A stretch of DNA of 64,000 nt, from positions 22,521 to 86,520 of the forward strand of contig JACDNV010000010.1 of assembly GCA_017656425.1 (NCBI GenBank). Direction: 5' to 3'. The position numbers and the translations under genes were made by a program. The notes beneath the pieces were generated by a model. That model had not been told where the DNA came from, searched no databases, and saw only the letters and a program-made list of their open reading frames with translations. This DNA comes from Candidatus Neomarinimicrobiota bacterium. GTDB lineage: Bacteria; Fidelibacterota; UBA2242; B5-G15. The number at the start of each line of letters is the position of its first letter. Position 1 is the stretch's first letter. This document shows, piece by piece, positions 4,606-63,947 of the stretch.

Positions 4606-4608
4606 GTT

Positions 4609-5244: not shown

Positions 5245-5245
5245 A

Positions 5246-5422: not shown

Positions 5423-5449
5423 TTTTATGAGTAGGGAGTCCTTCGTACC

Positions 5450-6487: not shown

Positions 6488-6501
6488 AGTATAGGGGCAT
6501 T

Positions 6502-9394: not shown

Positions 9395-9949
9395 ATGAAT
9401 GAGAGGGTTAAATTAAAAGTAGCCGATGAAAATAGTATAAACAGAACAATTACAAGGCTTACCCATGAGATACTTGAGAAAAATAAAGGTATATACAATC
9501 TGGTAATCGTGGGCATAAGGACAAGAGGAGAGTATATTGCAAAGAGGGTTGCCGAGAAAATAGAGAAAATTGAGAACGTTAAAATGCAGATAGGAGTGCT
9601 TGATGTGGTGCTTTACCGGGATGATCTAAGATTAAGAACGAAAATACCAAAAGTACAGATAAGCGATATTCCATTCGAAATTGATGATAAGACTGTTGTA
9701 TTGGTTGATGATGTAATCTATACTGGCAGGACTACACGTGCAGCACTCGATGCTTTAGTTGATTACGGTAGACCTGCGAAGATACAGTTAGCGGTTCTTG
9801 TTGATCGTGGTGGTAGGGAGATGCCAATTTGCCCTGATTATATAGGTATGAAGTTACCAGTATCTGTTGGTGAGGAAGTCAGAGTTAAAGTAAAAGAAGT
9901 AGACGGTGAAGATGGAGTTTTTATAGTGGAGGTGGTAGATGAGTCTTAG
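9395..9949 (+). CDS. pyrR: Bifunctional pyr operon regulator / uracil phosphoribosyltransferase
   Basis: PyrR binds pyr mRNA in response to UMP/UTP and often has uracil phosphoribosyltransferase activity. At 184 aa it has the family length. The PRPP-binding loop is VVLVDDVIYTGRTTRAAL, and the N-terminal TRLTHEILEKNKG and LVDRGGREMPICPDYIG are typical. GGAG precedes the ATG. It heads pyrR-pyrB-pyrC and overlaps pyrB by 11 bases. The terminator directly upstream suggests regulation by attenuation. Confidence 0.94.
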   Translation: MNERVKLKVADENSINRTITRLTHEILEKNKGIYNLVIVGIRTRGEYIAKRVAEKIEKIENVKMQIGVLDVVLYRDDLRLRTKIPKVQISDIPFEIDDKTVVLVDDVIYTGRTTRAALDALVDYGRPAKIQLAVLVDRGGREMPICPDYIGMKLPVSVGEEVRVKVKEVDGEDGVFIVEVVDES

Positions 9950-45690: not shown

Positions 45691-46446
45691 GTGAGAATAA
45701 AAGTAACTCTGTTCGCTAATGATTTGATCAGGTTAAATTTTAAATACAACCTGTATATACGGAATCTTATCTATACTATCCTACCGGAAAGATATTCAGA
45801 ATTTCTTCATAATGTGGGATTTAAGTATGAAAAGAGGAATTTCAAATTGTTTACCTTTTCCAAAGTATATGGTAAATACTTCAATGAGAGAGATAAAAAA
45901 TTTAAAGATGAACTTGTCTTTGATTCCGAGATACATTTTTATATAGCAAGTCCTATAACAAAAATTCTTCAATATATAGCAAGTTCGATGGTAAAGAGGG
46001 AGTCTTTTAAATTAGGTAAGAATAAGTTATATCTTAAATCGATAGAGGTATATAATATACAGTCATTTGATGGCGATGTAACTATAAAGATGCTATCCCC
46101 TATGACAATAAGGAGTACTCTTTATAAAAAAGATGGATCGAGAAAAACCTACTATTATACTCCATATGAAGAAGAGTTTAGTAGGAAAATGACAGAAAAC
46201 CTCAGGAAAAAGTACTATCTGGTAAATGGTAAGCTCTCAGACGGAAATGTTGAAATTACTCCATTAAAAAATTATCGTGAGAAAGTGATATTAGGCGATA
46301 AAGATTATGTAATAAAAGCCTGGGACGGTGTTTATAGGTTAACAGGTGATCCGGAATTAATTTCACTCTCCTACGATGCCGGACTTGGTGAAAAAAATAG
46401 TCAGGGATTTGGAATGTGGGAAGTGTGGAGGGGGAAGAATGATTGA
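45691..46446 (+). CDS. cas6: CRISPR RNA endoribonuclease Cas6
   Basis: Cas6 cuts the precursor CRISPR RNA within each repeat, leaving an 8-nt 5' handle. The 251-aa RAMP protein ends in the glycine-rich loop GLGEKNSQGFGMWEV typical of the family. The start is GTG 45691. It is the first gene of the type I-B operon and the only Cas6 visible, so it likely supplies crRNA to the Cmr complex as well. The operon's upstream 180 bases are AT-rich and hold no gene. Confidence 0.92.
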   Translation: MRIKVTLFANDLIRLNFKYNLYIRNLIYTILPERYSEFLHNVGFKYEKRNFKLFTFSKVYGKYFNERDKKFKDELVFDSEIHFYIASPITKILQYIASSMVKRESFKLGKNKLYLKSIEVYNIQSFDGDVTIKMLSPMTIRSTLYKKDGSRKTYYYTPYEEEFSRKMTENLRKKYYLVNGKLSDGNVEITPLKNYREKVILGDKDYVIKAWDGVYRLTGDPELISLSYDAGLGEKNSQGFGMWEVWRGKND

Positions 46447-48232
46447 AGCAATAAGGGGGATTGGAAAATATTCTTTAAAAAGGAAAAATATTGATCCTGA
46501 CGATATAATCTCCATATTAACAGAAAATCCTGTAAATAATGACAATCAGAATGCTATAGAAATTGATTTCGAAACAAAAAATAACGGACTTAAATACTGT
46601 CAAGTATTAACAAATAAAGCAGATAGCTTGAATTACAGAAAGTATTTATATAAGCCAAAGGCCGCTGCTGGTGCCAATTATACACCAACATGTTTAATCA
46701 GTGGTAAGGGTATTGAGGTAACATTTCATAACCGAATCATAAATTGGGCGTCAGGAAATGTAAATAGAAAAGGTATTGTAGGTATGCTTGCAAAATCAAT
46801 AATTGAAAACAAAGATAATATCTTTAACGATCTAATTAAAAAAGATAAAGAATTAGATCTAACTGGGTGTATTTTGACTATAAAAATTAACGGTAGTTAT
46901 TTGGGTGACTTAAAGGAATTTAGAGAATATCTTATAAATAATTATTATGAAAATAAATCAAAAATCTCTAATAATAAAGGTACTTGTAGCATATGTGGGA
47001 GTCAAGGATTTGTTATGGGCAATATTAAACCATGGAATTTTTATAGTCTTGATAAACCCGGATATATAGCTTCAGGATTTCAATCAAAATATGGCTGGAG
47101 AAATTTCCCAGTTTGTAAAAAATGTGGTTTATATTTAGAAGAAGGTAAGAAACACGTTGAAGATAATTTGAGCTTTAGATTTGCCAGAATACCTTACTTT
47201 TTAATACCAAAATCATTGTTAAATAAAGAAGAGTTACTAGAAGAATGTCTGGATTTTATTGAGTATGACCGAGTAAAGCAAGTAAAGATGAAAGATTTGA
47301 AGAAACTTGCTGATGATGAAGATGAGATACTTGACTTTGCCAGCGAATTAAACGATCAGATTTCTTTTGACTTTTTATTCTACGAGAAAGTACAACAAAA
47401 ATTCTCTATTATTTTATATTTACAAGATATATTGCCTTCATCAATTAAGGAATTGATAAAAAATAAGGAAGAAATTGAAAAATATTGGATTTTTCATAAT
47501 GCATATAAAGAAAAGGACGAATTGAAAAATGTAGAGTTTAACTTTGCCAATTTAAAGTATATCATTGGAGATACAACAATTTTCCTAAACATAGTGGAAA
47601 AGGTGTTTAAGAGAAGGCCTATCGACTATTATTATCTATTAAGCTTGATATTAAACACTTTAAGAGCGATTTTTGTCAATCCAGATTTTTCATATACTAA
47701 ACCTACAACATTGAAGTCATGGCAGACGTTAATGTATATAAATAGACTTGGTCTTTTTGTAAGTAAAAATGTAGGAGGAGATGGAAAAATGTCTTTAAAT
47801 GTAATTAACAATGAGATAAGGGAAAAAATCGATAAGTTTTTTGATACCTTTAAAGAGACATTCGATACTGACGCGAAAAAAGCGGTATTCCTAACAGGAG
47901 TTTTAGTTCAATTTTTACTAAATATCCAGAAACAGGATAGAGGCTCAGATCCATTTAGAAAGAGAATAAAAGGATTAAAAATGAGCAAGCAAGATATAAT
48001 CAAAATTTTCCCTGAGGCTCAAAATAAACTGGAAGAGTACAATAAGAATTATTACAAACAGCTAGAAGAAATAATAGCTGAGTATTTTATTAAGGCAGGT
48101 AATGAATGGAACTTAAAAGATGATGAATTGAACTTTTATTTTCTTTTAGGAATGGATTTAAGTGATGCAAAAGATGAGAATGGGCAATCTTTATTTAAGA
48201 GTGTGAAGGTTGAAGAAGAAACAACGATTTAA
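46439..48232 (+). CDS. cas8b: Type I-B Cascade large subunit Cas8b (TM1802/Csh1 type)
   Basis: This is a large subunit of the I-B Cascade complex, 597 aa, involved in PAM recognition. The zinc-finger-like segment has C183 and C186 (TCSICGSQGF) and C226 and C229 (PVCKKCGLYLEEGKK), characteristic of TM1802-type proteins. I place the start at ATG 46439, with GGAGGGGG upstream; it overlaps cas6 by eight bases. The rest is helical and poorly conserved. Confidence 0.88.
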   Translation: MIEAIRGIGKYSLKRKNIDPDDIISILTENPVNNDNQNAIEIDFETKNNGLKYCQVLTNKADSLNYRKYLYKPKAAAGANYTPTCLISGKGIEVTFHNRIINWASGNVNRKGIVGMLAKSIIENKDNIFNDLIKKDKELDLTGCILTIKINGSYLGDLKEFREYLINNYYENKSKISNNKGTCSICGSQGFVMGNIKPWNFYSLDKPGYIASGFQSKYGWRNFPVCKKCGLYLEEGKKHVEDNLSFRFARIPYFLIPKSLLNKEELLEECLDFIEYDRVKQVKMKDLKKLADDEDEILDFASELNDQISFDFLFYEKVQQKFSIILYLQDILPSSIKELIKNKEEIEKYWIFHNAYKEKDELKNVEFNFANLKYIIGDTTIFLNIVEKVFKRRPIDYYYLLSLILNTLRAIFVNPDFSYTKPTTLKSWQTLMYINRLGLFVSKNVGGDGKMSLNVINNEIREKIDKFFDTFKETFDTDAKKAVFLTGVLVQFLLNIQKQDRGSDPFRKRIKGLKMSKQDIIKIFPEAQNKLEEYNKNYYKQLEEIIAEYFIKAGNEWNLKDDELNFYFLLGMDLSDAKDENGQSLFKSVKVEEETTI

Positions 48233-48251
48233 TAAATATGGGGAGGAAAAA

Positions 48252-49166
48252 ATGTCAGAATTATTAAAAAATAGGCATGAAATTTTATTTTTATACGATG
48301 TAAAAGATGCGAATCCGAATGGTGATCCCGCTGATGAAAATAAGCCAAGGATTGATGAGGAAACTGGAGTCAATATCGTAACCGATGTAAGGTTGAAGCG
48401 TACTATTAGAGATTATCTGTGTGATTATAAAGGATTAACAGTTTTTGTTAAAGAAGTTAGAAAAGATTCAGGAGACCTTGAAACAAAGGAGGAAAGATTA
48501 GATGAATTAAAGATAAATAGTCCCAGTGATTTGCTTGATAAGTGCATCGATATAAGGTTATTTGGGGCAACAGCAGCTATAAAAAACAAGACTATAACAT
48601 TTACTGGTCCTGTACAGTTTAGATTTGGAAGATCTTTGCATTCTGTAAAAATTGATTATGTTAAGGGAACAACAGTTATGCCATCAAAGGAATCAAAAAA
48701 ACAGGGGACTTTTACCGAATGTTATATCGTACCTTACTCTCTAATAGCATTTTATGGTATTGCGAATGAAAACCTTGCTAAAATCTCTAAAATGACAGAA
48801 GAAGATCACATGTTGCTACTCGAAGCCATGTGGAATGGTACAAAAAATTTAATTTCCCGTAGTAAAGTTGGACATATGCCAAGGTTACTAATAGATATTG
48901 AATTTAAAGAAAACAATTACCATATAGGAGATCTTGACAAATTGGTAAAAATAAACTCTGATTATGATTACGAAGAAATAAGAGATATTTCTGACTTGTC
49001 ATTGAATGTTGGTAATCTATTGGATGTAATTAAAAATAATAGCACTAAAATTCATAGAATAAGAGTTTCCTTTGATAAGAGATTAAATGTTGTTCCTAGA
49101 GATTCTTGGGCAAATCTTTCTTCCTATACGGGAATAGATAATATCGAATTTTTAGCATTTGATTAA
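48252..49166 (+). CDS. cas7: Type I-B Cascade backbone protein Cas7 (Csh2)
   Basis: This is a backbone subunit binding crRNA along its length, 304 aa. The N-terminal YDVKDANPNGDPADENKPR and VTDVRLKRTIRDYL are the standard Csh2 opening. I chose ATG 48252 because GGGGAGG precedes it; an in-frame upstream start at 48210 would overlap cas8b. Located between cas8b and cas5 as expected. Confidence 0.94.
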   Translation: MSELLKNRHEILFLYDVKDANPNGDPADENKPRIDEETGVNIVTDVRLKRTIRDYLCDYKGLTVFVKEVRKDSGDLETKEERLDELKINSPSDLLDKCIDIRLFGATAAIKNKTITFTGPVQFRFGRSLHSVKIDYVKGTTVMPSKESKKQGTFTECYIVPYSLIAFYGIANENLAKISKMTEEDHMLLLEAMWNGTKNLISRSKVGHMPRLLIDIEFKENNYHIGDLDKLVKINSDYDYEEIRDISDLSLNVGNLLDVIKNNSTKIHRIRVSFDKRLNVVPRDSWANLSSYTGIDNIEFLAFD

Positions 49167-49181
49167 TTAGCGGGTCCAATT

Positions 49182-49952
49182 ATGAAAATTTTAGCATTTG
49201 ATATTTGGGGAGATTGGGCTCTGTTTAAGAAATTTTACACTACTGCCTCGCCACTCACTTTTCATTTTCCACCTATAACGACATTAAAAGGGATCGTAGG
49301 TGCGATATTAGGATTATCTAACAATCCAAAAGATAATAACTTTTATTTGGAAATTTTAGGAGACTATTTATTCGGGATACAAATTATCAAACCTATAAAA
49401 ACTTATAGAATGGGATATAATTGGATAGAAACAAAAAAGGCAAAATATATGCAAATCATGCCTCCTGAAAAAAGCAGATATCAAACAATTATTGAAACTT
49501 TGAAAGATCCTTATTATCGTGTGTATGTTGGTTCGAAAGAGGAAAGCTCGTTTTGGGATAAATTAGTAGAATTAATCAAAAATCATAAAAGTATATTTAC
49601 TCCATTTTTAGGTATTTCTGAACATATTGCTGAATTTAAATATGTTGGTTTATATAATGTTGATAAAATAGAAAATTCTTTAAAGAAATTTGTTTCAATC
49701 TCGTCGGTAGTTAGTATAGATGGTATTGATGATATAAGTGATTTTTTAAAAATTGAATCAGGTAAGGTGTACCAGCGAGATAAAATCCCCGTTGAGATGG
49801 ATAATAATCGAAAAGTTACAAAATATTCTACCGTTTTATATGAAATGAATGGTAGAGATCTAATTATAAAATTAAAAAAATACTGGCAGTTGGAAAATGG
49901 AATCAGAATATATTTATTCGAAAATAAAATGGATATCCCATCCTCCCGATAA
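49182..49952 (+). CDS. cas5: Type I-B Cascade protein Cas5
   Basis: Cas5 caps the 5' handle of the crRNA. The 256-aa RAMP protein opens KILAFDIWGDWALFKKFYTT and LTFHFPPITTLKGIVGAILG, the usual Cas5 start with its glycine-rich turn. The end overlaps the cas3 reading frame by 56 bases. Confidence 0.92.
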   Translation: MKILAFDIWGDWALFKKFYTTASPLTFHFPPITTLKGIVGAILGLSNNPKDNNFYLEILGDYLFGIQIIKPIKTYRMGYNWIETKKAKYMQIMPPEKSRYQTIIETLKDPYYRVYVGSKEESSFWDKLVELIKNHKSIFTPFLGISEHIAEFKYVGLYNVDKIENSLKKFVSISSVVSIDGIDDISDFLKIESGKVYQRDKIPVEMDNNRKVTKYSTVLYEMNGRDLIIKLKKYWQLENGIRIYLFENKMDIPSSR

Positions 49953-52248
49953 AAAATGGATAGAACATTCATTGAAAGTTGAAGAACTATCTAAAAAATT
50001 TTTAAAAGATTTACCTGATTGCATAAATGTATTGTTACCCAAGAAAGTATGGCAAATATTGTTAAGTAATATTTCATTTTTCCATGATATAGGGAAAGGG
50101 ACAAAATATTTTCAGGATTATATTGTTTCTGAAAACAAAGTTAAAACAGAATTGTCGAATCATTCGCTTTTATCATCCTTAGTGACTTATTGGATTGTCG
50201 AAAAATTATTAGAACCAATATTTAGAGATAGTAATTTAATCAAGCTTTATTCTTTTATTGCCTTTCTAGTAGTTAGATATCACCACGGTGATTTGCAAAA
50301 TCCTAAAACATCTATTTTGTTAGAACAAAATCAAATATCTTTAATAAGAAAGCAATGGGAATCAATAGACAAAGATGTTATAAACTTATTATTAAATTTT
50401 AGAAATGTTCCATTATCATATGATGAAATAGAAATGAGAATAAAAACACTTCCGGAATCATTTAAAATTAAAAAAGTGATTATCAAATTTTTAATCAATA
50501 ATAAAAGATTAGATTACTATTTTATAATAAATATTTTATACTCTATACTTGTAGATGCAGATAAACTTGCTGCCGGGCTAAATTTTGTTCCCGAACAAAA
50601 TCTTGAAATACCTGAAAATATTATAGATATATACAGAGAAATGAGAGGTTGGACGAAAAGTACAGAATTTTTTGATGAATTGAGAAACAATGCATATAAA
50701 GAGGTAATAAATTCAATAAGTGATATTGATAATAAAAATATATTTAGCATTCAGCTTCCTACTGGGTTTGGTAAAACATTTACTTCTCTATCTTTTGCTA
50801 TAAAATTGCTTAAGAAAAAAAGATTAAAGAGAATTATTTATTGTCTACCATTTACTTCAATTATAGATCAGAATTATCATGAGATTCAAAAGATGTTTGA
50901 AACAGTTTTAAAAAGGGAAGTTGACGCTTCATTTCTTTTAAAACACCATCACTTAAGCGAATTATTTTTTAAATATGATGATAGAGAATTTTCATATTCA
51001 GAATCTCAGCTATTAACTGAGAGCTGGCATAGTAAAGTTATTGTTACAACATTTGTTCAATTATTCCACACGTTAATAGGGTATAAGAATAGGGCATTAA
51101 AAAAGTTTCATCGATTATTAAATAGTGTGATAATCCTTGATGAAGTACAGTCAATACCAATAAAATATTGGAAAGTGATTGGAGAGATGCTTAGCTTTCT
51201 TTCTGGAAATTTGAATTGCAACATCATTTTAGTAACTGCCACTCAGCCTAAAATTTTGCCAGAAGAGAAAGTGTTGAAATTGGCAAATTCAGAAAAGTAT
51301 TTTAAAAGTATAAATAGAACTCATTTGAAAATAAATATACAAAATAACATGAATGTCAATCAATTAGTTGAATATGTAAAAGCACATTCAACTGGTAAGA
51401 AAAAGATAATAGTTGTTTTGAATACAATAAAAGTTTCTGCAGATTTTTATTCCAAGACAAAAAATTCTTTTAAAAATGCATACTATTTGTCATCTTATAT
51501 TATTCCAAAACAAAGATTGGAAATATTAAGACATATTAATAGATTGGATGAATATTATTTAGTTTCAACTCAAATTATCGAAGCGGGTGTAAATCTTGAT
51601 GCAGATATATTATTTAGAGATTTTGCTACAATGGATTCAATTAATCAGGTAGCCGGACGCTGTAATAGATTTAATATGAAAAGTGCTGGAGAAGTACATG
51701 TTTTTAAATTGGAGGATAATGAAAGAGGAAGGTTAGTTGCATCTTATATTTATGATATATCATTACTGGACATTACAGAGAAGACATTTATAAATAAAAC
51801 AAAATATGAAGAGAAAGAATTCTTATATCTTTGTGATTGCTACTATGATAAATTATTGAGTTTTAATTCTATGGAGTCTGAGAAAATTCTTGATTCAATA
51901 AAGAAATTGAAATATACTGATGATGATTATGCTATATCGACTTTTAAATTAATTGATGAAAATTACGAAAAATTCGATGTATTCATTGAATATGATTCTG
52001 AAGCAGAAAATATTTGGGAAAGATACTATTCATTAAACGAAATAAAGGACTTTTGGAAAAAACATGAAGAATACCTTAAAATAAAAAACAAATTACAGAA
52101 CTATATAATAAGTGTTAATTCGAAAGACCTTGAACTAAACAAACCGCCCTTAGTTAACGGTATTTACTATGTTTCAAGAAACCAGTTAGATGAGTATTAT
52201 GATATAGAAACAGGGTTTAAAAAAATTAGCTCGGCGAGTATATGGTAG
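49897..52248 (+). CDS. cas3: Cas3 helicase-nuclease
   Basis: This is the effector nuclease of type I interference, with HD nuclease and helicase in one 783-aa chain. The HD domain shows H24 region (WIEHSLKVEELSKKF) and H63-D64 (FFHDIGKGTKYF). The helicase has Walker A LPTGFGKTFTSLSFA near residue 288, Walker B ILDEVQSIP near 414, VTATQP, and motif VI NQVAGRCNRF. The start at ATG 49897 lies within cas5 but is needed to include the first conserved histidine region. It begins the nuclease part of the operon. Confidence 0.95.
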   Translation: MESEYIYSKIKWISHPPDKKWIEHSLKVEELSKKFLKDLPDCINVLLPKKVWQILLSNISFFHDIGKGTKYFQDYIVSENKVKTELSNHSLLSSLVTYWIVEKLLEPIFRDSNLIKLYSFIAFLVVRYHHGDLQNPKTSILLEQNQISLIRKQWESIDKDVINLLLNFRNVPLSYDEIEMRIKTLPESFKIKKVIIKFLINNKRLDYYFIINILYSILVDADKLAAGLNFVPEQNLEIPENIIDIYREMRGWTKSTEFFDELRNNAYKEVINSISDIDNKNIFSIQLPTGFGKTFTSLSFAIKLLKKKRLKRIIYCLPFTSIIDQNYHEIQKMFETVLKREVDASFLLKHHHLSELFFKYDDREFSYSESQLLTESWHSKVIVTTFVQLFHTLIGYKNRALKKFHRLLNSVIILDEVQSIPIKYWKVIGEMLSFLSGNLNCNIILVTATQPKILPEEKVLKLANSEKYFKSINRTHLKINIQNNMNVNQLVEYVKAHSTGKKKIIVVLNTIKVSADFYSKTKNSFKNAYYLSSYIIPKQRLEILRHINRLDEYYLVSTQIIEAGVNLDADILFRDFATMDSINQVAGRCNRFNMKSAGEVHVFKLEDNERGRLVASYIYDISLLDITEKTFINKTKYEEKEFLYLCDCYYDKLLSFNSMESEKILDSIKKLKYTDDDYAISTFKLIDENYEKFDVFIEYDSEAENIWERYYSLNEIKDFWKKHEEYLKIKNKLQNYIISVNSKDLELNKPPLVNGIYYVSRNQLDEYYDIETGFKKISSASIW

Positions 52249-52354
52249 ATAATTATAAGCAATTTTGTTTTTTTTGAATTTTTAATAGGTTAAAAAATAG
52301 TATTGTTTAATTATATTTTTAGAAACGGCGAGAATAAATAGTTTATGGGATAAA

Positions 52355-52858
52355 ATGACATTTCAATCTACTATTTATGCTACCCTCATCTGGTATTATT
52401 ACATCTGTCCACGTGAGGTTTGGCTTATGTCCAGACAGCTTACGCCTTCGCAGGATAATCCCTTTATTGACATTGGAAGATATATTTCAGAGGAAGCATA
52501 TAAAAGAGAAAGAAAAGAAATTCGTATTGAAAACATTGTAATAGACCTGCTAAGAAAAGAGGGGGATAATGTTGTAATCTGTGAAGTTAAGAAAAGTTCT
52601 CGTTTTGAAAAAAGTGCAAAGATGCAGCTTGCTTATTATCTCTTAAGATTAAAAAAACTTGGTATCTCTGCTACCGGGGAGCTTCTTTTTCCGAAAGAAA
52701 AGAAAAAGGTCTCTGTAACTCTAACAAAAGAGATTGAGGAAGAACTAATTTCTGCACAAAGACAGATAAAGTCAATCATTCAGATGGAATTGCCACCGCC
52801 AGTTCGGAGAATAAAATTTTGCTCAAAATGTGGTTATCGTGAGTTTTGCTGGTCATGA
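52355..52858 (+). CDS. cas4: CRISPR adaptation exonuclease Cas4
   Basis: Cas4 trims prespacers and selects PAM-containing ones together with Cas1-Cas2. At 167 aa it has the four iron-sulfur cysteines: C18 (YYYICPREVW) and C156, C159, C165 (CSKCGYREFC). The RecB-like nuclease core is around VVICEVKKSS. Its stop overlaps the cas1 start (ATGA). Confidence 0.93.
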   Translation: MTFQSTIYATLIWYYYICPREVWLMSRQLTPSQDNPFIDIGRYISEEAYKRERKEIRIENIVIDLLRKEGDNVVICEVKKSSRFEKSAKMQLAYYLLRLKKLGISATGELLFPKEKKKVSVTLTKEIEEELISAQRQIKSIIQMELPPPVRRIKFCSKCGYREFCWS

Positions 52859-53880
52859 AACGCACTATTTATATATTTTCCGATGGAGAAATTAAGCGAA
52901 AGGGGAATACTTTATATTTTGAAAATGAAAGTGGTAAAAAATATATCCCTGTCGAAAATTGTAATGAGATATTAATATTTGGAGAAGTATCTTTTAATAA
53001 AAAACTTTTAGAATTTTTATCTCAGCATGAGATAATTCTGCATTATTTCAGCCATTATGGATATTATATGGGTTCTTTTTATCCAAGGGAACATTATAAT
53101 TCAGGGTATATGATAATAAAACAGGCTGAACATTATCTTGATAAAAACAAGAGATTTAATCTCGCAAAAAAATTTGTACATGGCGCAATAGAAAATATGC
53201 TTAAAGTACTGCAGTATTACAATAGAAGGGGTAAAAATCTTGAATCGAATATCACGTCAATAGAGGATCTAAAAGGAAATATAAATGAAATTAAAACAGA
53301 TGAGGAACAAGATCCAATATTTCAACTTATGGCTGTTGAAGGGAATATAAGGGAAATATATTATAAATCTTTTAATAAAATAATTGAAAATAATGATTTT
53401 AAGTTTGAAACTCGTTCAAGGAGACCACCCAAATCCAGAATAAATGCTTTAATCAGTTTTAGTAATTCATTGGTATATACTGTCGTTCTTTCTGAAATTT
53501 ATAAAACCCATCTTGATCCCAGAGTAGGTTATCTTCATAGTAGTAATTTTAGAAGATTTTCTTTAAATCTTGATATAGCTGAAGTTTTTAAACCAATAAT
53601 TGGGGATAGAACCATATTTTCTCTTATCAACAGGAGAGTACTAAATCATAATATGTTTTTAAGTGAGTTAAGTAACGAAAAAGTTGGAGGGATTGTCTTA
53701 AATGATAAAGGAAGAAGAGTATTTGTTGAGGAATTTGATAATAGAATGAAAAATACAATAAAACATAAAACACTGAAAAGAAATGTATCATACCGACAGC
53801 TGATATTGCTTGAGGCTTATAAAATTCAAAAACATCTGATGGGAGAAAAAGAATATGAGCCTTTTGTAGCTCAGTGGTAA
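52855..53880 (+). CDS. cas1: CRISPR integrase Cas1
   Basis: Cas1 is the spacer integrase, 341 aa. The metal ligands are E162 (AVEGNIRE), H228 (GYLHSSNFRRFS) and E243 (LDIAEVFKPIIGDR). The start is ATG 52855, overlapping the cas4 stop by four bases. It lies between cas4 and cas2, the I-B order. Confidence 0.96.
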   Translation: MKRTIYIFSDGEIKRKGNTLYFENESGKKYIPVENCNEILIFGEVSFNKKLLEFLSQHEIILHYFSHYGYYMGSFYPREHYNSGYMIIKQAEHYLDKNKRFNLAKKFVHGAIENMLKVLQYYNRRGKNLESNITSIEDLKGNINEIKTDEEQDPIFQLMAVEGNIREIYYKSFNKIIENNDFKFETRSRRPPKSRINALISFSNSLVYTVVLSEIYKTHLDPRVGYLHSSNFRRFSLNLDIAEVFKPIIGDRTIFSLINRRVLNHNMFLSELSNEKVGGIVLNDKGRRVFVEEFDNRMKNTIKHKTLKRNVSYRQLILLEAYKIQKHLMGEKEYEPFVAQW

Positions 53881-53898
53881 ACATTATAGGGGGCAACG

Positions 53899-54162
53899 TT
53901 GTATGTAATACTTGTTTATGATGTTGGAGAAAAAAGGGTAGCAAAAACCTTAAAGACATGCAGGAAATACCTACATTGGGTTCAAAATTCTGTATTTGAA
54001 GGAGAGATAACGAATGCCAATCTTGTCCGATTAAAGGGGGAATTAAAAAGAATTATAAAAAAAGAAGAAGATTCGGTTGTGATATATCAATTTAGGACTT
54101 TAAACTATAGTACGCGCGAGATACTAGGACAGGAGAAGGGTGGAGAAAAATATATATTATAA
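53899..54162 (+). CDS. cas2: CRISPR adaptation protein Cas2
   Basis: This is an 87-aa ferredoxin-fold partner that bridges Cas1 dimers. It opens YVILVYDVGEKRVAKTLK with the usual first-strand aspartate D8, and ends LGQEKGGEKYIL. The start is TTG 53899 with AGGGGG upstream; no ATG is in frame. The leader and array follow after about 165 bases. Confidence 0.94.
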   Translation: MYVILVYDVGEKRVAKTLKTCRKYLHWVQNSVFEGEITNANLVRLKGELKRIIKKEEDSVVIYQFRTLNYSTREILGQEKGGEKYIL

Positions 54163-54327: not shown

Positions 54328-57300
54328 GTTTTAAGCCTACCTATGAGGAATTGAAACACTCTTGGTCAAATTCTGGTATGGATAAATCCAATTGTTTTAA
54401 GCCTACCTATGAGGAATTGAAACTTCCTCTCCTGCTACGGGAGAGGTAGCGATTTTTGACCGTTTTAAGCCTACCTATGAGGAATTGAAACTCTTGTATA
54501 TTCTTATAATGATAATTTTGGTTTACATGTTTTAAGCCTACCTATGAGGAATTGAAACGAAGATGAGAACGAGGTAAATAACTATGATAAATTGGGTTTT
54601 AAGCCTACCTATGAGGAATTGAAACATTACTGGGAGTTGAATGAAAGATTTAAGAGATTTTTGTTTTAAGCCTACCTATGAGGAATTGAAACGTTTTTCA
54701 TGTTCTTTCATTTTATTCCTCACTAATTGAGTTTTAAGCCTACCTATGAGGAATTGAAACTGTGTTTTTTTCATTTTATCTGCCTTTTTTAATATAGTTT
54801 TAAGCCTACCTATGAGGAATTGAAACGTAGGACAAATTCACGATTCAATTTTAATTGATGTTAAGTTTTAAGCCTACCTATGAGGAATTGAAACGCAGAA
54901 CAGAAAGAAAATAAACTAAAGATTTCAGATGTTTTAAGCCTACCTATGAGGAATTGAAACCTATCGCTCTATACTTCTCTCCATTCCATTCACCTAGTTT
55001 TAAGCCTACCTATGAGGAATTGAAACGAGATAGGTGATAAAGGATATATGAAGCAATTTATTTACGTTTTAAGCCTACCTATGAGGAATTGAAACACCTC
55101 CGAACTTCAGACTTCACTTTTACCAAATATTGTTTTAAGCCTACCTATGAGGAATTGAAACAAGATTCCTGAAACCTTAGAATTGATAAGACAGGAAGTT
55201 TTAAGCCTACCTATGAGGAATTGAAACATTAGTTGTTCTTTCGATTTGTATCCCGCATAAACACGTTTTAAGCCTACCTATGAGGAATTGAAACCCTATT
55301 TCTGCATACTCACCATATATGGAATTTCTGGTTTTAAGCCTACCTATGAGGAATTGAAACTAAATCCTCTTGTTCATACCAACTACCATCAACAGGGGTT
55401 TTAAGCCTACCTATGAGGAATTGAAACACGAAATTGTTAAGAAAGTAAGTGTTGTAGACTTGAGTTTTAAGCCTACCTATGAGGAATTGAAACCTATCTA
55501 ATTCCTTAGGATTAACATCAATTAAAATGTTTTAAGCCTACCTATGAGGAATTGAAACTGTCCTGAATGACTTTTTTCTTATGATTTTCCCAGTTGTTTT
55601 AAGCCTACCTATGAGGAATTGAAACTCAAACTTCATAATATTAAAACTGAAAAAAGGAAAAGGTTTTAAGCCTACCTATGAGGAATTGAAACTCATCAGG
55701 AGGAGATTTGAAACCCCCCATTCCGTAAGGGTTTTAAGCCTACCTATGAGGAATTGAAACAGTATACCGAGAGTATTAAAGCCAACATAATTCCTAGTTT
55801 TAAGCCTACCTATGAGGAATTGAAACTGACTATGAATTAGAAAATCGAGTAAAAGTATTATCGTTTTAAGCCTACCTATGAGGAATTGAAACAAATTTTT
55901 ATTATGTTATCTATTTTTCTTTGGTTATCGTTTTAAGCCTACCTATGAGGAATTGAAACGAAGGTGCTATTGGTATATTGAAATCCTCATATAATTGTTT
56001 TAAGCCTACCTATGAGGAATTGAAACTCGTTCCACCTGAAATACTCTTTTTTTCAGTCCCTGGTTTTAAGCCTACCTATGAGGAATTGAAACCAGGTGTT
56101 CCAAATCGAAATTATATTCTGTTTCATACAGTTTTAAGCCTACCTATGAGGAATTGAAACTCAACAACTTTTTCTCCAGTTCCCCGGAGGAATATGGTTT
56201 TAAGCCTACCTATGAGGAATTGAAACTTGAATACCTTTATCATTTGCATAATCACCTATTGTGTTTTAAGCCTACCTATGAGGAATTGAAACATGAAAGA
56301 ATTCAAAGATATAGCAGTTAAGATCGATGTTTTAAGCCTACCTATGAGGAATTGAAACCCAGTGCTTGCAGTCTTTATTATCTTATTAGCACCGTTTTAA
56401 GCCTACCTATGAGGAATTGAAACCCTTAATAGTTTCTTTTTTGAAATTCATTTTACTCTGTTTTAAGCCTACCTATGAGGAATTGAAACCTTTTCAAAGA
56501 CCAGGGGCTGGTGCAAAATTTTTTGAGTTTTAAGCCTACCTATGAGGAATTGAAACATAGTATAAGTTCCATCTCCATTATTAGTTATTGTTCCAGTTTT
56601 AAGCCTACCTATGAGGAATTGAAACCCTGTATCTATTTGAGAAATAACTCCACTATCACTTACGTTTTAAGCCTACCTATGAGGAATTGAAACCCCTCCT
56701 TCTGGGAATTCGTTCAACGGTATTGTGATGTTTTAAGCCTACCTATGAGGAATTGAAACCGTCCCAAGCTATATTCCCTTGAGCCAAACTACCAGGTTTT
56801 AAGCCTACCTATGAGGAATTGAAACTGATTTGATTTTAGATATTTGCTTTCTAACGGATTCTGTTTTAAGCCTACCTATGAGGAATTGAAACATTTCTTA
56901 AAGGAATCTAAGAAATACGAAAACGTTTGTTTTAAGCCTACCTATGAGGAATTGAAACAGTGAAAAATTGGACAACATAGCTGAAAAATTAGAAGTTTTA
57001 AGCCTACCTATGAGGAATTGAAACCTTTGGAGTTCCATTTCAATCCTAACCATTCAATGGTTGTTTTAAGCCTACCTATGAGGAATTGAAACCTTTGGAG
57101 TTCCATTTCAATCCTAACCATTCAATGGTTGTTTTAAGCCTACCTATGAGGAATTGAAACCTTCTCTCGGTGCAGCATATTATATGTATAATGATATGTT
57201 TTAAGCCTACCTATGAGGAATTGAAACTGTGTAGTGAAGCTGTTATTATATACGAAAATGATGGTTTTAAGCCTACCTATGAGGAATTGAAACATAAACA

Positions 57301-60294
57301 TCACATTTAGGATAAGTCCATACAAACCCTGTTTTAAGCCTACCTATGAGGAATTGAAACAATTATGGACAAGAAGGAACTCCAACTCTTGATGCTGGGT
57401 TTTAAGCCTACCTATGAGGAATTGAAACAATATTTTGGGAAATATAAAAAAGCACCTTTTAATCTTCGTTTTAAGCCTACCTATGAGGAATTGAAACGAA
57501 TATGTGTGGTTTCGTGGGCTATAGATTCCAATAGTTTTAAGCCTACCTATGAGGAATTGAAACTCCTCTTGGCGGTCATATTCATTTTAGTATTCCGCCG
57601 TTTTAAGCCTACCTATGAGGAATTGAAACACAAAAGATGTTATTAATGTAAATAGTGAAGGCGGGGTTTTAAGCCTACCTATGAGGAATTGAAACAAATC
57701 ATAATAATTTTGGGTACTGCAGATTGTATTAGTTTTAAGCCTACCTATGAGGAATTGAAACACTATGTTATCAAATTGTTTTAATAACGTTTAATAAGTT
57801 TTAAGCCTACCTATGAGGAATTGAAACACCTGAATTATATTACTTGGAGGACCAAAATGAGAGGTTTTAAGCCTACCTATGAGGAATTGAAACGCTAAAA
57901 TTCCAACAATAAACAATTTGTATGGATGTGTTTTAAGCCTACCTATGAGGAATTGAAACTGGTTTTTATTTTGCCATAATTTTAATTCTAATTTTGTTTT
58001 AAGCCTACCTATGAGGAATTGAAACTATGCAATCTTGAACAATTCAAATAGTTTATCCCCAAGTTTTAAGCCTACCTATGAGGAATTGAAACAGATTCGT
58101 TCCAGATATAAAGATTACGAAGCTATCAAAGTTTTAAGCCTACCTATGAGGAATTGAAACTTGGTTCTTTTTTATTCTTTTCCCAGCTAATAACCCAAAG
58201 TTTTAAGCCTACCTATGAGGAATTGAAACAATGCTACTACCTATGGTCAGATTTGTAAATCTTTGGGTTTTAAGCCTACCTATGAGGAATTGAAACCCTC
58301 TCTGTCTTCATATTCCCCTTCGGGAATTTCAAGTTTTAAGCCTACCTATGAGGAATTGAAACTCCTCTTTAACAGAAGATTTTAATAAAGATGAAATAAG
58401 TTTTAAGCCTACCTATGAGGAATTGAAACCAAAAGGTTCTTTTCCAGAGTGAGAAACGGTCAAAGTTTTAAGCCTACCTATGAGGAATTGAAACCCCAAT
58501 TTCTGTTTAGGATACCATCCATTCTTCATTGTTTTAAGCCTACCTATGAGGAATTGAAACATAGATAATAAACTACGTGTAACACATCCAAGACATTCGT
58601 TTTAAGCCTACCTATGAGGAATTGAAACCCTATTTCTGCATACTCACCATATATGGAATTTCTGCGTTTTAAGCCTACCTATGAGGAATTGAAACCATTT
58701 TTGAGGCTCTATCAGTTGAAATGCATACTGGAGTTTTAAGCCTACCTATGAGGAATTGAAACCAGTTTATAAAGGTTATGGTGATCCTACGAAGAAAGAG
58801 GTTTTAAGCCTACCTATGAGGAATTGAAACTATATTCTTTTATCAATTCCTTCGGTTTGACTTTTTCGTTTTAAGCCTACCTATGAGGAATTGAAACCCA
58901 CAAAATATGTCCCTTTCCCCTCCAGTTTCCCTAAGTTTTAAGCCTACCTATGAGGAATTGAAACCTGTATAGTATATGATGAATCACGGAAAGGTAGTAT
59001 AGGTTTTAAGCCTACCTATGAGGAATTGAAACGAAAACTTTTTATATAACTGGATTTCATTTCCTCTAAAGTTTTAAGCCTACCTATGAGGAATTGAAAC
59101 ACTTAGGCTCTCATCAGTTTCCTTTTTTATTCTTATTGTTTTAAGCCTACCTATGAGGAATTGAAACTCAAAAGGACGTGATGGAGCTCGTTTAATATAT
59201 GGTATGTTTTAAGCCTACCTATGAGGAATTGAAACGGAGGACCTTAAAATGGCAAAAGTAGAGTACTCAGCAGTTTTAAGCCTACCTATGAGGAATTGAA
59301 ACTATACTAAAGCGTATTTTTCGTCTTCAATTATAGCACGTTTTAAGCCTACCTATGAGGAATTGAAACATGACTGGGTTGACAATTCATCTGAGAATGT
59401 GAGTAGTTTTAAGCCTACCTATGAGGAATTGAAACTCTGATAGAATTCATAAGTGTCCTAAATGTGGAATTGGTTTTAAGCCTACCTATGAGGAATTGAA
59501 ACACCCAATCTTTGACTTTATAGAAGTTGTATCCGATGTTTTAAGCCTACCTATGAGGAATTGAAACGCAGTTAGATTATAATTTCCTAAATCAACGTCT
59601 TGGTTTTAAGCCTACCTATGAGGAATTGAAACAGAAGGAAAAGGATTGGATTAAAGTTTTTCCAGAAAGGTTTTAAGCCTACCTATGAGGAATTGAAACT
59701 GGTATAGTTTTTGTAAGCATACCATAGGAAATTGTGTTTTAAGCCTACCTATGAGGAATTGAAACGAAGCTTGGAGTTTGGTAAATAATATCAAGGATTA
59801 TTTGTTTTAAGCCTACCTATGAGGAATTGAAACCAAATACTTCTTACTTTTAATATCAGGTATCTTATGTTTTAAGCCTACCTATGAGGAATTGAAACAC
59901 TGTTGCCCTAAATCTGTCCATGTAAGGCCGTAGTGTTTTAAGCCTACCTATGAGGAATTGAAACTACGATGTGGGAGTAAATTGGACTGATTTAGGACAG
60001 GTTTTAAGCCTACCTATGAGGAATTGAAACGTTTTAAGGCTTTTATTCCAGCTTCGCAAACCTGCGTTTTAAGCCTACCTATGAGGAATTGAAACCCTGA
60101 TTCAATATCTGATCTTAATATTATTCGTTATGTTTTAAGCCTACCTATGAGGAATTGAAACGAGGAAATTAGAAAAATATCTAAAGAGGGAACTATGGTT
60201 TTAAGCCTACCTATGAGGAATTGAAACATTTTCGGCACAAACTTATTTATTGGAAAAATACTTTGTTTTAAGCCTACCTATGAGGAAATGCAAA
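54328..60294 (+). CRISPR. CRISPR array A, 90 repeats of 30 bp
   Basis: I count 90 copies of a 30-base repeat that begins GTTTTAAGCC and ends ATTGAAAC, spaced about 66-68 bases apart, giving 89 spacers of about 35-38 bases. All copies appear identical until the last (60265-60294), where the 3' end TTGAAAC has changed to ATGCAAA, as expected at the leader-distal end. Two adjacent spacers are identical (57025-57062 and 57093-57130), and one spacer sequence recurs far apart with a one-base longer version (55295-55330 and 58629-58665). The ATTGAAAC end predicts the 8-nt crRNA handle. The count was made by eye. Confidence 0.97.
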
Positions 60295-60373
60295 AAGCGA
60301 GCAAGCTATCAAACCAGTCTCTTTGAGACCCTCCGAAGGAGTTCTATCGAACCTTCGGGGCAAGCCAGCAAGC
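60295..60373 (+). repeat. 79-bp double-hairpin element, copy 1
   Basis: This sequence sits directly after the degenerate last repeat of array A and recurs at 61625-61703 after array B with three differences. It contains GTCTC-TTT-GAGAC and a strong bulged hairpin, CCGAAG-ga-GTTC-TATC-GAAC-CTTCGG, and ends GCCAGCAAGC. It is much richer in GC than most spacers. It could be a small palindromic repeat element or a terminator for array transcripts. Confidence 0.85.
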
Positions 60374-60462
60374 AAGTAAAGTTGTATTGCTATCTTTGAG
60401 GAAAATATAAACAGTGAACAAGCTAAAAAGCTTGCAAGCCTTTAAGCCTGCTAGCTATTAAG
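60374..60462 (+). repeat. Decayed CRISPR repeats between the arrays
   Basis: Traces of the CRISPR repeat can be read here. 60379-60412 ends CTTTGAGGAAAATATAAAC, close to the repeat's 3' half. Near 60440 CTTTAAGCCTGCTAGCTAT resembles its 5' half. I infer an old, eroded part of the array around the hairpin element. Confidence 0.6.
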
Positions 60463-61624
60463 GTTTTAAGCCTACCTATGAGGAATTGAAGCCCAAATTA
60501 TTAAACGATATTTTGTCGAGTAATTTGTGTTTTAAGCCTACCTATGAGGAATTGAAACGAAGCATAATCCCTATCGAAATAGAGAATAGAGAAGTTTTAA
60601 GCCTACCTATGAGGAATTGAAACACCAATCCCAATCTTTTTTATGAAAAAGGCTTTTTCCTAGTTTTAAGCCTACCTATGAGGAATTGAAACTTACACCA
60701 CCTAATATACTTTTAACAGAACATCCCCTTGTTTTAAGCCTACCTATGAGGAATTGAAACTCTAATGGATTGTATGAAGTTGAAATAAAACTAAAAGGTT
60801 TTAAGCCTACCTATGAGGAATTGAAACCTTCATAATTCTGGAGAGTATCACTTTCGAAATCAGCGTTTTAAGCCTACCTATGAGGAATTGAAACTCACTT
60901 ATCCAAGTCCCTGATCGCATATGTCGATTAGTTTTAAGCCTACCTATGAGGAATTGAAACACCATAATTATCCCTCCTTTCTAATTTGCATTATATGTTT
61001 TAAGCCTACCTATGAGGAATTGAAACTCGCCTGAATATCCATTTTCAAAATATATATAATCTGTTTTAAGCCTACCTATGAGGAATTGAAACTTTGCACC
61101 GTCCATTTTTCAGCATTTACCTCGATTTCGTTTTAAGCCTACCTATGAGGAATTGAAACACAGGTTCTCCCCTAGCAAACCTACTGCCATAGCTATGAGT
61201 TTTAAGCCTACCTATGAGGAATTGAAACTCAGGTAAAGAACGTTTAATCTGGTCTTTGTATTTTTCAAGTTTTAAGCCTACCTATGAGGAATTGAAACTT
61301 CTGCTTCTTTCCGTGATTTGCAATGAAAGAGAGCGTTTTAAGCCTACCTATGAGGAATTGAAACTCTCATCATATGACGATAAAACTGCATTTGTTGAAT
61401 GTTTTAAGCCTACCTATGAGGAATTGAAACTTGAAAACAAATAGTGCCTCTAAGTGATTCACACCGTTTTAAGCCTACCTATGAGGAATTGAAACATATA
61501 AACGTGAATGCCCGCAGGATAATATTCATTGTTTTAAGCCTACCTATGAGGAATTGAAACTTATCCTAATGATTAGGATTTACTATCCTATCGTGTTTTA
61601 AGCCTACCTATGAGGAATTGAAAC
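60463..61624 (+). CRISPR. CRISPR array B, 18 repeats of 30 bp
   Basis: Eighteen repeats of the same 30-base sequence give 17 spacers. The first repeat (60463-60492) has G for A at position 29 (TTGAAGC); the others appear intact, including the last at 61595-61624. There is no cas-side leader of its own, only the 168 bases of element and decayed repeats after array A, so this is probably the older end of one array cut off by an insertion or rearrangement. A copy of the 79-bp element follows at once. Confidence 0.95.
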
Positions 61625-61728
61625 AAGCGAGCAAGCTATCAAGCCCGTCTCTATGAGACCCTCCGAAGGAGTTCTATCGAACCTTCGGGGCAAGCCAGCA
61701 AGCTTTTAAGCTTACATATGAAATGAGT
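61625..61728 (+). repeat. 79-bp double-hairpin element, copy 2, and a decayed repeat
   Basis: 61625-61703 repeats the element at 60295-60373 with 76 of 79 bases the same. It is followed at 61702-61728 by GCTTTTAAGCTTACATATGA, a clear degenerate form of the CRISPR repeat start. The element therefore occupies the place of a spacer between a good repeat and a decayed one. Confidence 0.8.
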
Positions 61729-61738
61729 CAGAAAAGTA

Positions 61739-61766
61739 TTGACAAATAAGAAAAATATATTATATT
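61739..61766 (+). promoter_or_regulatory. Sigma70-type promoter downstream of the array
   Basis: TTGACA (61739-61744), a 16-base spacer and TATATT (61761-61766) make the best-looking promoter in the window. It faces the small basic protein gene, giving a leader of about 45 bases with AAGGAGGT. Confidence 0.75.
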
Positions 61767-62260: not shown

Positions 62261-63562
62261 ATGTATACTACAAAATTTAAATGTAGTGTTGTAACACCAA
62301 TGTTTATGTCAGGTGCAGACAAAAGGACACCTGAGTTGAGACCATCGGAATTTAAGGGCATGATGAGGTTCTGGTGGAGAGCAGCTAAGGCGGAAAACGA
62401 TATTACAAAACTTAGAGAGGAAGAGGCTGAAATATTTGGTGGAACAGGTGAAAGTGAGGGAAAGAGTAAGGTAAATATAAAGATTGTTTGTGATAGAGAA
62501 ATGTTAAAAAAATTTTCCGGTATGAACTTGAAGAACGATTACAACCTACAATGGAGTTATGGTAAACATTCAGGCATTGGATACATTTTATATTCAACAG
62601 TATTACGAAATAGTGAGCGGGGATTTATAAAGGATGGGTTTTCATTTGATTTTATTTTATCATCAATGGATGAAAAAACTTTTAAGCAGACCATTGCTTC
62701 TTTCTGGCTTACAATCTATCTTGGTGGACTTGGAACGAGGGCAAGAAGAGGTGGAGGATGCTTATCTGTTAAAGAAAAAGCTGGAGAAACTTTTGGATTA
62801 AGCTTTGTGCCTGAAGGAAATAATTCGCTTAAAAATTGGTTAATAGAGAATTTTAATAGGGCACAGGAAATGATTGGTGGCAAAGCAAAAGATTTTTGCT
62901 ATTCTTACAGTAATTTAAGTATTTCAAGAGTTATGTTGAGTAACAAATCATTTAGAGATTGGAAAGAGACTCTTAACGATATAGGTTCACTTTACTCCAA
63001 TTTTAGGTTAAAAAACAGAAACAAAATTTTTTTAACAGGAGCGTTTGGATTACCCGTAATGCATAGAAACACCAAAATAGTTGCTGCTAGATTAGGCAAC
63101 AGGCTAAAATTAAACCGCAGATCAAGTCCTATAATTATTAAAGTTATGAAATTTAATAACAATTATTATTGGATGGCTATTAGATTAGCAGGGGAATTTT
63201 TGCCACCAGGTATTGTATTGATATCCAGAGATAGAAGAACCCAAAAACCGGAGTATAATTTAATTGATGAATTCTGGAACTTGTTAAAAAGAAAAGGAGA
63301 AGAAATTATTCTTTCTATACCAGAGAAACTTTTAAAAACAGTAGAGAAGATCAAAAAAACTAATCCAGATAAAATAGTTCTATTTGGTTCAAAGGCAAGG
63401 GGTGATTTTTATGAAAAATCGGATATAGATATAGCTGTATATGGTGAATACCCAGACGATATTGAGGGAAATATTGATATAGTAAATATTGCTAAAGCTG
63501 ATCAAAAGCTAAAAGAGAAAATTGAAAGAGAAGGAATTAGCCTTTATGAGCGAAAGACTTAA
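62261..63562 (+). CDS. cmr1: Cmr1 fused to a minimal nucleotidyltransferase (MNT) domain
   Basis: Residues 1 to about 325 are a complete Cmr1, the RAMP subunit at the 3' end of the type III-B effector: TTKFKCSVVTPMFMSGAD, LRPSEFKGMMRFWWRA, AEIFGGTGE, then GGLGTRARRGGG and SPIIIKVMKF in the second half. Residues about 355-433 are an MNT antitoxin-type domain: GSKARGDFYEKSDIDIAV holds the motif G376-S377-x10-D388-x-D390, the third acidic residue is D406 (GNIDIVN), and it ends in the usual EREGISLYERK. All catalytic residues are intact. The next gene is a HEPN protein, the normal partner of MNT, overlapping by 17 bases. A Cmr1-MNT fusion is not known to me. Confidence 0.9.
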   Translation: MYTTKFKCSVVTPMFMSGADKRTPELRPSEFKGMMRFWWRAAKAENDITKLREEEAEIFGGTGESEGKSKVNIKIVCDREMLKKFSGMNLKNDYNLQWSYGKHSGIGYILYSTVLRNSERGFIKDGFSFDFILSSMDEKTFKQTIASFWLTIYLGGLGTRARRGGGCLSVKEKAGETFGLSFVPEGNNSLKNWLIENFNRAQEMIGGKAKDFCYSYSNLSISRVMLSNKSFRDWKETLNDIGSLYSNFRLKNRNKIFLTGAFGLPVMHRNTKIVAARLGNRLKLNRRSSPIIIKVMKFNNNYYWMAIRLAGEFLPPGIVLISRDRRTQKPEYNLIDEFWNLLKRKGEEIILSIPEKLLKTVEKIKKTNPDKIVLFGSKARGDFYEKSDIDIAVYGEYPDDIEGNIDIVNIAKADQKLKEKIEREGISLYERKT

Positions 63563-63947
63563 AGCAATTTTTATAGACTTCGAAAGGACTTATAGGAATC
63601 TGATAGAAGCTACTAATAATGCCAAAACAGATTTGGAAATAGATGGCGCAATAAAAAGATTTGAATTATGTTATGAGCTTGCGTGGAAGATTATAAAGGA
63701 ATATTTAGCTAATCTTGGTATTATATGCAAAAATCCTAGAGATTGCTTTAAGTATGCTTATCAAAATGGCCTTATAAATGACGAAAATGTATGGCTTGAG
63801 ATGATAGGAGTAAGGAATCAGCTTGTCCATACATACACATCAGAACAATCAAGAGAAGTTTTTGAGAAAATGAGAAGTAAATACATAGAGGCATTTGAAA
63901 ACCTTTATATTTCTATAAAAAAGGGAGTAAATGATGTGGAATATTAA
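63546..63947 (+). CDS. HEPN-domain protein, HI0074-type toxin partner of MNT
   Basis: This is a 133-aa protein of the nucleotidyltransferase-substrate-binding (HI0074/KNTase C-like, HEPN) group. The toxin motif is intact: R90-N-Q-L-V-H95-T-Y97, i.e. Rx4HxY. In the studied HEPN-MNT pair, R and H form the RNase site and the tyrosine is adenylylated by MNT. Other family segments are IDGAIKRFELCYELAWKIIK and NPRDCFKYAYQNGLI. I start at ATG 63546; TTG 63522 would lie deeper in cmr1. It overlaps both the Cmr1-MNT gene and cmr2, so it is translated as part of the Cmr operon. Confidence 0.88.
   Translation: MSERLKAIFIDFERTYRNLIEATNNAKTDLEIDGAIKRFELCYELAWKIIKEYLANLGIICKNPRDCFKYAYQNGLINDENVWLEMIGVRNQLVHTYTSEQSREVFEKMRSKYIEAFENLYISIKKGVNDVEY

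What the first reader, a model, noticed from the sequence alone, without database searches (positions are those of the whole stretch)
62261..63947. HEPN-MNT toxin-antitoxin pair built into a type III-B operon, with the MNT antitoxin fused to Cmr1
Seen directly: one open frame encodes a full-length Cmr1 followed by an MNT domain with intact GSx10DxD and a third Asp (G376-S377, D388, D390, D406). The next gene, overlapping by 17 bases, encodes a HEPN protein with Rx4HxY (R90, H95, Y97), and it in turn overlaps cmr2. Known: MNT enzymes neutralise HEPN RNases by adenylylating the tyrosine of Rx4HxY. Inference: the Cmr complex carries the antitoxin enzyme, so assembly or target binding by the complex could control whether HEPN is modified. 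That would give an RNA-triggered toxin branch, or addiction to the CRISPR system, beside cyclic-oligonucleotide signalling. ATP used by the MNT domain could also link to Cas10 nucleotide chemistry.
Basis: partly seen in the sequence, partly recalled or inferred. Interest (0 to 1): 0.93.

Follow-up and report, generated by a model that had tools for sequence, protein, structure and literature searches.

The report
Toxin antidote fused to CRISPR protein
A bacterial CRISPR defence operon carries a probable RNA-cutting toxin whose antidote enzyme is fused to a structural CRISPR protein (Cmr1); the arrangement is real and recurs in distant bacteria, but a protein of the same design is already deposited in the Protein Data Bank.

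Summary
Window 62261-63562 is one frame encoding Cmr1 (TIGR01894) plus a C-terminal MNT domain with GSx10DxD and a third Asp. Gene 63546-63947 encodes an HI0074-type HEPN with RNQLVHTY (Rx4HxY) and overlaps cmr1 by 17 nt. It is not an assembly error. The same fusion followed by the same HEPN occurs in nine other genomes from Thermodesulfobacteriota, Bacillota and Acidobacteriota/Aminicenantes; eight of the ten fusions are intact, seven with full-length HEPN. The cmr-operon HEPNs form one clade (100/100), pointing to a single recruitment that then spread with Cmr1-MNT. MNT and HEPN are under strong purifying selection. Related Cmr1 proteins without MNT have no such HEPN. In one closed genome the intact pair survives with no other Cmr gene detected, so neutralisation probably does not need the assembled complex. 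Best reading: a type VII (HepT/MntA) toxin-antitoxin pair embedded in a type III-B operon, with Cmr1 carrying the antidote as a guard of cmr. RNA-triggered release is untested. Novelty is limited: PDB entries 9z7q, 9z7v and 9z7x contain a chain that its depositors named Cmr1-MntA, and the window protein matches it end to end. I found no paper describing it.

The parts
62261..63313 (+). Cmr1 (RAMP, double Cas7) moiety of the fusion, about residues 1-351
   Evidence: TIGR01894 and PF03787 matches; model residues 1-351 match A. fulgidus Cmr1 9l7c_A, Z 28.9, rmsd 2.8 over 294 residues
63314..63562 (+). MNT (MntA-like adenylyltransferase) domain at the C-terminus, GSx10DxD at G376-D390 and third Asp D406; no long C-terminal helix alpha4
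   Evidence: Pfam Polbeta and NTP_transf_2; motif intact in 8 of 8 fusions; predicted fold at high pLDDT
63546..63947 (+). HEPN (HI0074 / NTase_sub_bind family) RNase toxin candidate, Rx4HxY = R90, H95, Y97; ATG inside the end of cmr1
   Evidence: PF08780 4e-29; model matches AMPylated HEPN toxin 8xdj, Z 21.1, rmsd 1.2 over 126 residues
63931..64000 (+). start of cmr2 (cas10), HD-type N-terminus; cut by the end of the contig
   Evidence: sequence; same place and start as L006 cmr2 4596-7364, which matches TIGR02577 at 4.5e-81
54328..61750 (+). CRISPR array (30-nt repeat GTTTTAAGCCTACCTATGAGGAATTGAAAC, over 100 copies) between the type I locus and the cmr operon; end coordinate approximate
   Evidence: 104 copies found by repeat search
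45691..54162 (+). type I (I-B-like) cas locus upstream (cas6, cas8, cas7, cas5, cas3, cas4, cas1, cas2 by appearance)
   Evidence: ORFs; assignments by eye from the translations, not tested with profiles

Best explanation
This is a type VII (HepT/MntA, HEPN-MNT) toxin-antitoxin pair built into a type III-B operon. The antidote enzyme is the C-terminal domain of Cmr1. The MNT domain transfers AMP from ATP to Tyr97 of the HEPN protein and keeps that RNase silent. Because the antidote is translated as the tail of Cmr1 and the toxin is translated from within the end of the same frame, the toxin stays harmless while full-length Cmr1-MNT is made. If cmr1 is truncated, lost, shut off or its product destroyed, newly made or de-modified HEPN would act on RNA and arrest the cell. 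Shown here: the genes, conserved active sites, co-occurrence, single recruitment of HEPN, purifying selection, and persistence of the pair without other cmr genes. Inferred: the adenylylation (homology), the toxicity (homology) and the guarding role.
For: Catalytic motifs are intact in 8 of 8 fused MNT domains and 7 of 7 full-length HEPNs. HEPN lies directly behind the fusion with a 17-nt overlap in the window and L006, L007, L008, L014, L078 and L079, and 20 nt in L010. Related Cmr1 proteins without MNT (L011, L012, L015-L018, L034) run straight into cmr2 with no HEPN of this family. cmr-operon HEPNs are one clade, 100/100. dN/dS for L014 vs L078: MNT 0.03, HEPN 0.05, Cmr1 moiety 0.33. In G090, a single 2.36-Mb contig, Cmr1-MNT and HEPN are intact although cmr2-cmr6 are gone; the only other RAMP hits belong to a separate locus with long multi-RAMP proteins. 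Decay fits antidote logic: L008 has a truncated HEPN plus D406N in MNT; L009 has both broken; no intact HEPN was seen beside a clearly broken MNT. The closest solved HEPNs are adenylylated toxins.
Against: No activity was measured. Translational coupling through the 17-nt overlap would also lower HEPN when cmr1 is truncated, which weakens a simple addiction model. Only one orphan pair was found, and its cmr loss may be recent (98% identity to L013). The fused MNT lacks the alpha4 helix that gives S. oneidensis and A. flos-aquae MNT a second docking site, so its grip on HEPN may differ. In L. pneumophila HEPN the Rx4HxY Arg and His were dispensable for RNase activity (PMC11586414), so the motif does not prove the active site. 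Decay cases rest on MAGs and drafts.
Confidence: 0.58

Rival explanations
1. RNA-triggered branch: the assembled Cmr complex holds HEPN near the MNT domain, and target-RNA binding at the Cmr1 end changes MNT activity or access, so HEPN is switched on (or off) by RNA recognition, beside cyclic oligoadenylate signalling.
For: The fusion puts the antidote on a subunit of the RNA-sensing complex. The cmr operons stay complete in most members, with GGDD Cas10 and CARF genes. PDB entries 9z7q, 9z7v and 9z7x place a Cmr1-MntA chain in entries that also hold Cmr2 and Cmr3 chains.
Against: The pair stays intact in G090 without the other cmr genes, so it can exist without the complex. No HEPN chain turned up in those PDB entries. 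Nothing in the sequence shows a switch.
Confidence: 0.22
2. Incidental fusion: a mobile HEPN-MNT module inserted between cmr1 and cmr2, read-through joined MNT to Cmr1, and the pair now acts as an ordinary toxin-antitoxin module with no functional tie to CRISPR.
For: Stand-alone HepT/MntA modules and remnants lie beside other Cmr loci in Thermoanaerobacterales (L081, L007, L013, L079), so such modules do land there. Cmr1 works without MNT in close relatives.
Against: The fusion has kept its exact arrangement across at least three phyla at 44-56% identity to the window protein. A single HEPN clade travels with Cmr1-MNT. No case was seen with the two domains of this family split again.
Confidence: 0.13
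3. Domesticated pair: HEPN is only a substrate-binding subunit and Cmr1-MNT adds nucleotides to another target (a Cas protein, crRNA or target RNA).
For: HI0074-type proteins were first described as substrate-binding subunits of nucleotidyltransferases (PMC3710099). The fused MNT is minimal, without alpha4.
Against: Rx4HxY with its acceptor Tyr is invariant in 7 of 7 intact HEPNs, whereas HEPNs fused to nucleotidyltransferases as substrate domains usually lack the RNase residues (PMC3710099). The closest solved homologue is an AMPylated toxin.
Confidence: 0.07

Closest known systems
Cmr1-MntA chain of PDB entries 9z7q, 9z7v and 9z7x (type III-B Cmr complex)
   Same: Cmr1 with C-terminal MNT; the window protein aligns from residue 2 to 432, E 1.9e-105; entries also contain Cmr2 and Cmr3 chains
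   Different: Another organism's sequence; no HEPN chain found in those entries. Entry titles, text and any paper were not available here.
Type VII toxin-antitoxin HepT/MntA (S. oneidensis SO_3166/SO_3165; A. flos-aquae HEPN-MNT)
   Same: MNT gene 5' of HEPN, GSx10DxD and Rx4HxY motifs, class I pair by the definition in PMC7641770 (PF08780 with PF01909)
   Different: Antidote is a domain of Cmr1; no alpha4 helix; sits inside a cmr operon; scores below NCBIfam's cut-offs for both equivalogs
Legionella pneumophila HEPN-MNT (8xdj, 8xeh; PMC11586414)
   Same: Closest solved HEPN by fold (Z 21.1, rmsd 1.2 over 126 residues, 30% identity); its MNT also lacks alpha4
   Different: MNT is a separate small protein; its metal site is Q44/E47, and by the alignment the window HEPN has K37/E40 there
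CARF-HEPN effectors Csx1 and Csm6
   Same: HEPN RNase serving type III CRISPR
   Different: The window HEPN has no CARF domain; its probable control is covalent, by MNT, not by cyclic oligoadenylate
CreTA (RNA toxin-antitoxin guarding CRISPR loci, reviewed in PMC12737573)
   Same: Works like it, if the guard reading is right: loss of CRISPR function frees a toxin
   Different: Proteins, not small RNAs; antidote is a covalent modifier fused to a Cas subunit; not homologous

Membership tests
Type VII HepT/MntA (class I HEPN-MNT) toxin-antitoxin | MNT with GSx10DxD encoded next to a HEPN with Rx4HxY, PF01909 with PF08780 or PF01934 | tested here: met
Type VII HepT/MntA (class I HEPN-MNT) toxin-antitoxin | MNT gene upstream of HEPN in one operon | tested here: met
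   17-nt overlap in the window and six other loci, 20 nt in L010
Type VII HepT/MntA (class I HEPN-MNT) toxin-antitoxin | NCBIfam equivalog cut-offs for MntA (NF047752) and HepT (NF047751) | tested here: not met
   41.4 and 33.8 bits against a cut-off of 60 for each; the HEPN belongs to the sister subfamily HI0074 (99.5 bits, cut-off 55.8)
Type VII HepT/MntA (class I HEPN-MNT) toxin-antitoxin | HEPN is toxic and neutralised by adenylylation of the Rx4HxY tyrosine | not testable with these tools
   needs expression and labelling assays
Type III-B Cmr1 | Cmr1 family match and Cmr1 fold | tested here: met
   TIGR01894 58.3 bits, cut-off 28.65; fold match 9l7c_A and 4w8x
Type III-B Cmr1 | Encoded in a full cmr operon | tested here: inconclusive
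   contig ends in cmr2; C12 starts with cmr4-cmr5-cmr6; the orthologous L006 operon has cmr2 and cmr3 between
Cmr1-MntA (as named in PDB 9z7q) | Cmr1 with C-terminal MNT as one chain | tested here: met
   full-length alignment 2-432

The most novel reading that the evidence does not exclude
The Cmr complex is itself an RNA-regulated protein-modifying enzyme: target-RNA binding at the Cmr1 end changes AMP transfer to HEPN, giving type III-B a direct toxin branch that needs no second messenger.
Probability: 0.2. Interest if true: 0.85.

Novelty: new member of a known kind. Interest (0 to 1): 0.55.

Why it matters
Coupling a covalent toxin-antitoxin pair to a structural subunit of an RNA-guided complex would either make the CRISPR locus costly to lose or give the complex a toxin output separate from cyclic oligoadenylates. 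The family is compact (about 430 + 130 residues), comes from cultured thermophiles such as Thermodesulfobacterium thermophilum, Caldicoprobacter oshimai and Caldanaerobacter subterraneus, and includes an orphan pair that can be assayed without the complex, so the question can be tested directly.

Tried and rejected
Assembly artefact: rejected, because the same fusion occurs in nine other genomes. Other HEPNs of this family in the window genome: none. Viral and plasmid carriers: no fusion in IMG/VR, phages or plasmids. cmr2 elsewhere in the genome: not found with TIGR02577, PF12469 or the L006 protein, which fits an assembly gap between C10 and C12. Literature on Cmr1-MntA: no hit in the open library; subscription papers and preprints are not held. 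Fold search did not list 9z7q; that library stops at April 2026, which probably explains it. Cmr1 tree: the fusion needs three changes of state with weak inner support, so one gain with losses is likely but not shown. MNT tree too short to resolve. L013 is 98% identical to the intact L079 locus and its frames are broken by single-base indels, mostly in homopolymer runs, so I treat these as probable sequencing errors.

Full report
Observation. The window ends with a cmr operon start. ORF 62261-63562 is a 433-aa Cmr1 with a C-terminal MNT domain, and 63546-63947 is a HEPN gene starting inside the last codons of cmr1. Profiles support each part: Cmr1 TIGR01894 and RAMP PF03787, Polbeta and NTP_transf_2 for MNT, and NTase_sub_bind/HI0074 for HEPN. 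The genome's contig ends on the window's last base, in the first codons of cmr2. Contig C12 begins with a CARF-protein remnant followed by cmr4, cmr5 and cmr6. The missing middle most likely holds cmr2, cmr3 and CARF genes, as in L006; direct searches for cmr2 in the assembly found nothing.

Is it real and recurrent? Yes. A scan of genome contigs and whole-genome searches found the same fusion followed by the same HEPN in Thermodesulfobacterium thermophilum (L006), Caldicoprobacter oshimai (L007), Caldanaerobacter subterraneus (L014), a relative of it (G094, L078), a closed Thermoanaerobacter-like genome (G090, L079), an Aminicenantes MAG (L010) and an Acidobacteria MAG (L008, HEPN truncated). 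Two further genomes have broken frames: T. thermocopriae (L013) and a Bacillota MAG (L009). It is rare: 4 of 37 genomes in the Thermoanaerobacter class, 2 of 396 in the Acidobacteriota sample, 1 of 391 and 1 of 395 in two others, and only the window genome itself among 61 that included its relatives.

Anatomy. Across eight fusions G376, S377, D388 and D390 are invariant; D406 is Asn only in L008. HEPN R90, H95 and Y97 are invariant in seven full-length copies. S. oneidensis MntA uses D39, D41 and a third Asp, D71, to bind two Mg ions (PMC7641770); D406 holds the matching place by fold order (inference). AlphaFold2 gives a Cmr1 fold for residues 1-351 (best matches A. fulgidus and P. furiosus Cmr1) and a confident small MNT fold after it; helix alpha4 of larger MNTs is absent, as in L. 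pneumophila MNT (PMC11586414). The HEPN model fits the AMPylated L. pneumophila toxin with Z 21.1, rmsd 1.2 over 126 residues.

Evolution. HEPNs of cmr operons form one clade against five stand-alone HEPNs with full support (small sample). Cmr1 proteins lacking MNT run directly into cmr2 and have no HEPN of this family. For L014 against L078 dN/dS is 0.03 for MNT, 0.05 for HEPN and 0.33 for the Cmr1 moiety, so the pair is conserved at least as strictly as the CRISPR part. Decay is informative though thin: L008 has lost the end of HEPN, with Rx4HxY, and the third Asp of MNT; L009 has lost both frames; I saw no intact HEPN beside a clearly broken MNT. In L013 the pair stands before a cmr operon with no cmr1 of its own between cmr6 and cmr2, where L080 and L081 carry one, so Cmr1-MNT appears to serve a mosaic operon.

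The orphan. In G090 (one contig, 2,362,816 bases) Cmr1-MNT and HEPN are intact, but the following genes stop within a broken TIGR02710-like CARF gene and unrelated genes follow. The remaining RAMP hits in that genome lie 660 kb away, in a locus with long multi-RAMP proteins and its own GGDD Cas10. If HEPN is toxic, Cmr1-MNT must silence it there without the complex. This is the strongest point for the antidote reading and against the idea that assembly is needed. It is one case, 98% identical to L013, so the loss may be young.

Mechanism. I commit to an embedded HepT/MntA pair in which the MNT domain of Cmr1 adenylylates HEPN Tyr97, with guarding of the cmr locus as the most likely role. The enzymology is inferred from close families and I put it near 0.85; with the guard role included, 0.58. 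The 17-nt overlap couples toxin translation to cmr1 (inference) and partly undercuts simple addiction, because a cmr1 nonsense mutation would also reduce toxin. RNA-triggered control is not excluded (0.2) but has no direct support. A link to ATP use by Cas10 was not tested; Cas10 GGDD and CARF genes are kept in most fusion operons, with the HD motif variable.

What is known. The Protein Data Bank already holds a 438-residue chain named Cmr1-MntA in 9z7q, 9z7v and 9z7x, to which the window protein aligns end to end at E 1.9e-105. The same entries carry Cmr3 and Cas10/Cmr2 chains shared with 9arw. No HEPN chain from those entries matched the HEPN profile. I could not find a paper on it in the open library. 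The fusion is therefore not new as a kind.

Noticed in passing
L081 2787-3278 and 2384-2833 (minus); L007 6329-6604 and 6932-7315; L013 6667-6933; L079 about 9488-9667 (minus): Stand-alone MntA/HepT modules or remnants lie beside Cmr loci in several Thermoanaerobacterales; those in L081 score above NCBIfam cut-offs. Such modules repeatedly land next to cmr operons and could have seeded the fusion.
   Followed up: partly
L027 6968-7726: Thermodesulfobacterium hveragerdense has, at the place where L006 has Cmr1-MNT and HEPN, a shorter Cmr1 with a similar N-terminus and a different C-terminus, followed directly by cmr2: MNT and HEPN are both absent.
   Followed up: partly
L013 8752-10227; L079; L081 11870-13369 (minus): A 490-500 aa CARF gene (TIGR02710) heads a second cmr operon type; in G090 only a broken copy remains after the orphan pair.
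   Followed up: partly
L010 3553-4551 and 4539-5897: The Aminicenantes operon has two cmr1 genes in tandem, one plain (332 aa) and one fused to MNT.
   Followed up: no
L006 8487-9713 and 9710-10543: Two CARF-type genes (TIGR02619-like, the second like CRISPR ring nucleases) follow cmr3; the start of contig C12 in the window genome looks like the end of the second.
   Followed up: partly
window 54328-61750: A CRISPR array of over 100 repeats separates a type I-like cas locus from the cmr operon; one repeat-spacer unit is exactly duplicated (56995-57062 and 57063-57130).
   Followed up: no
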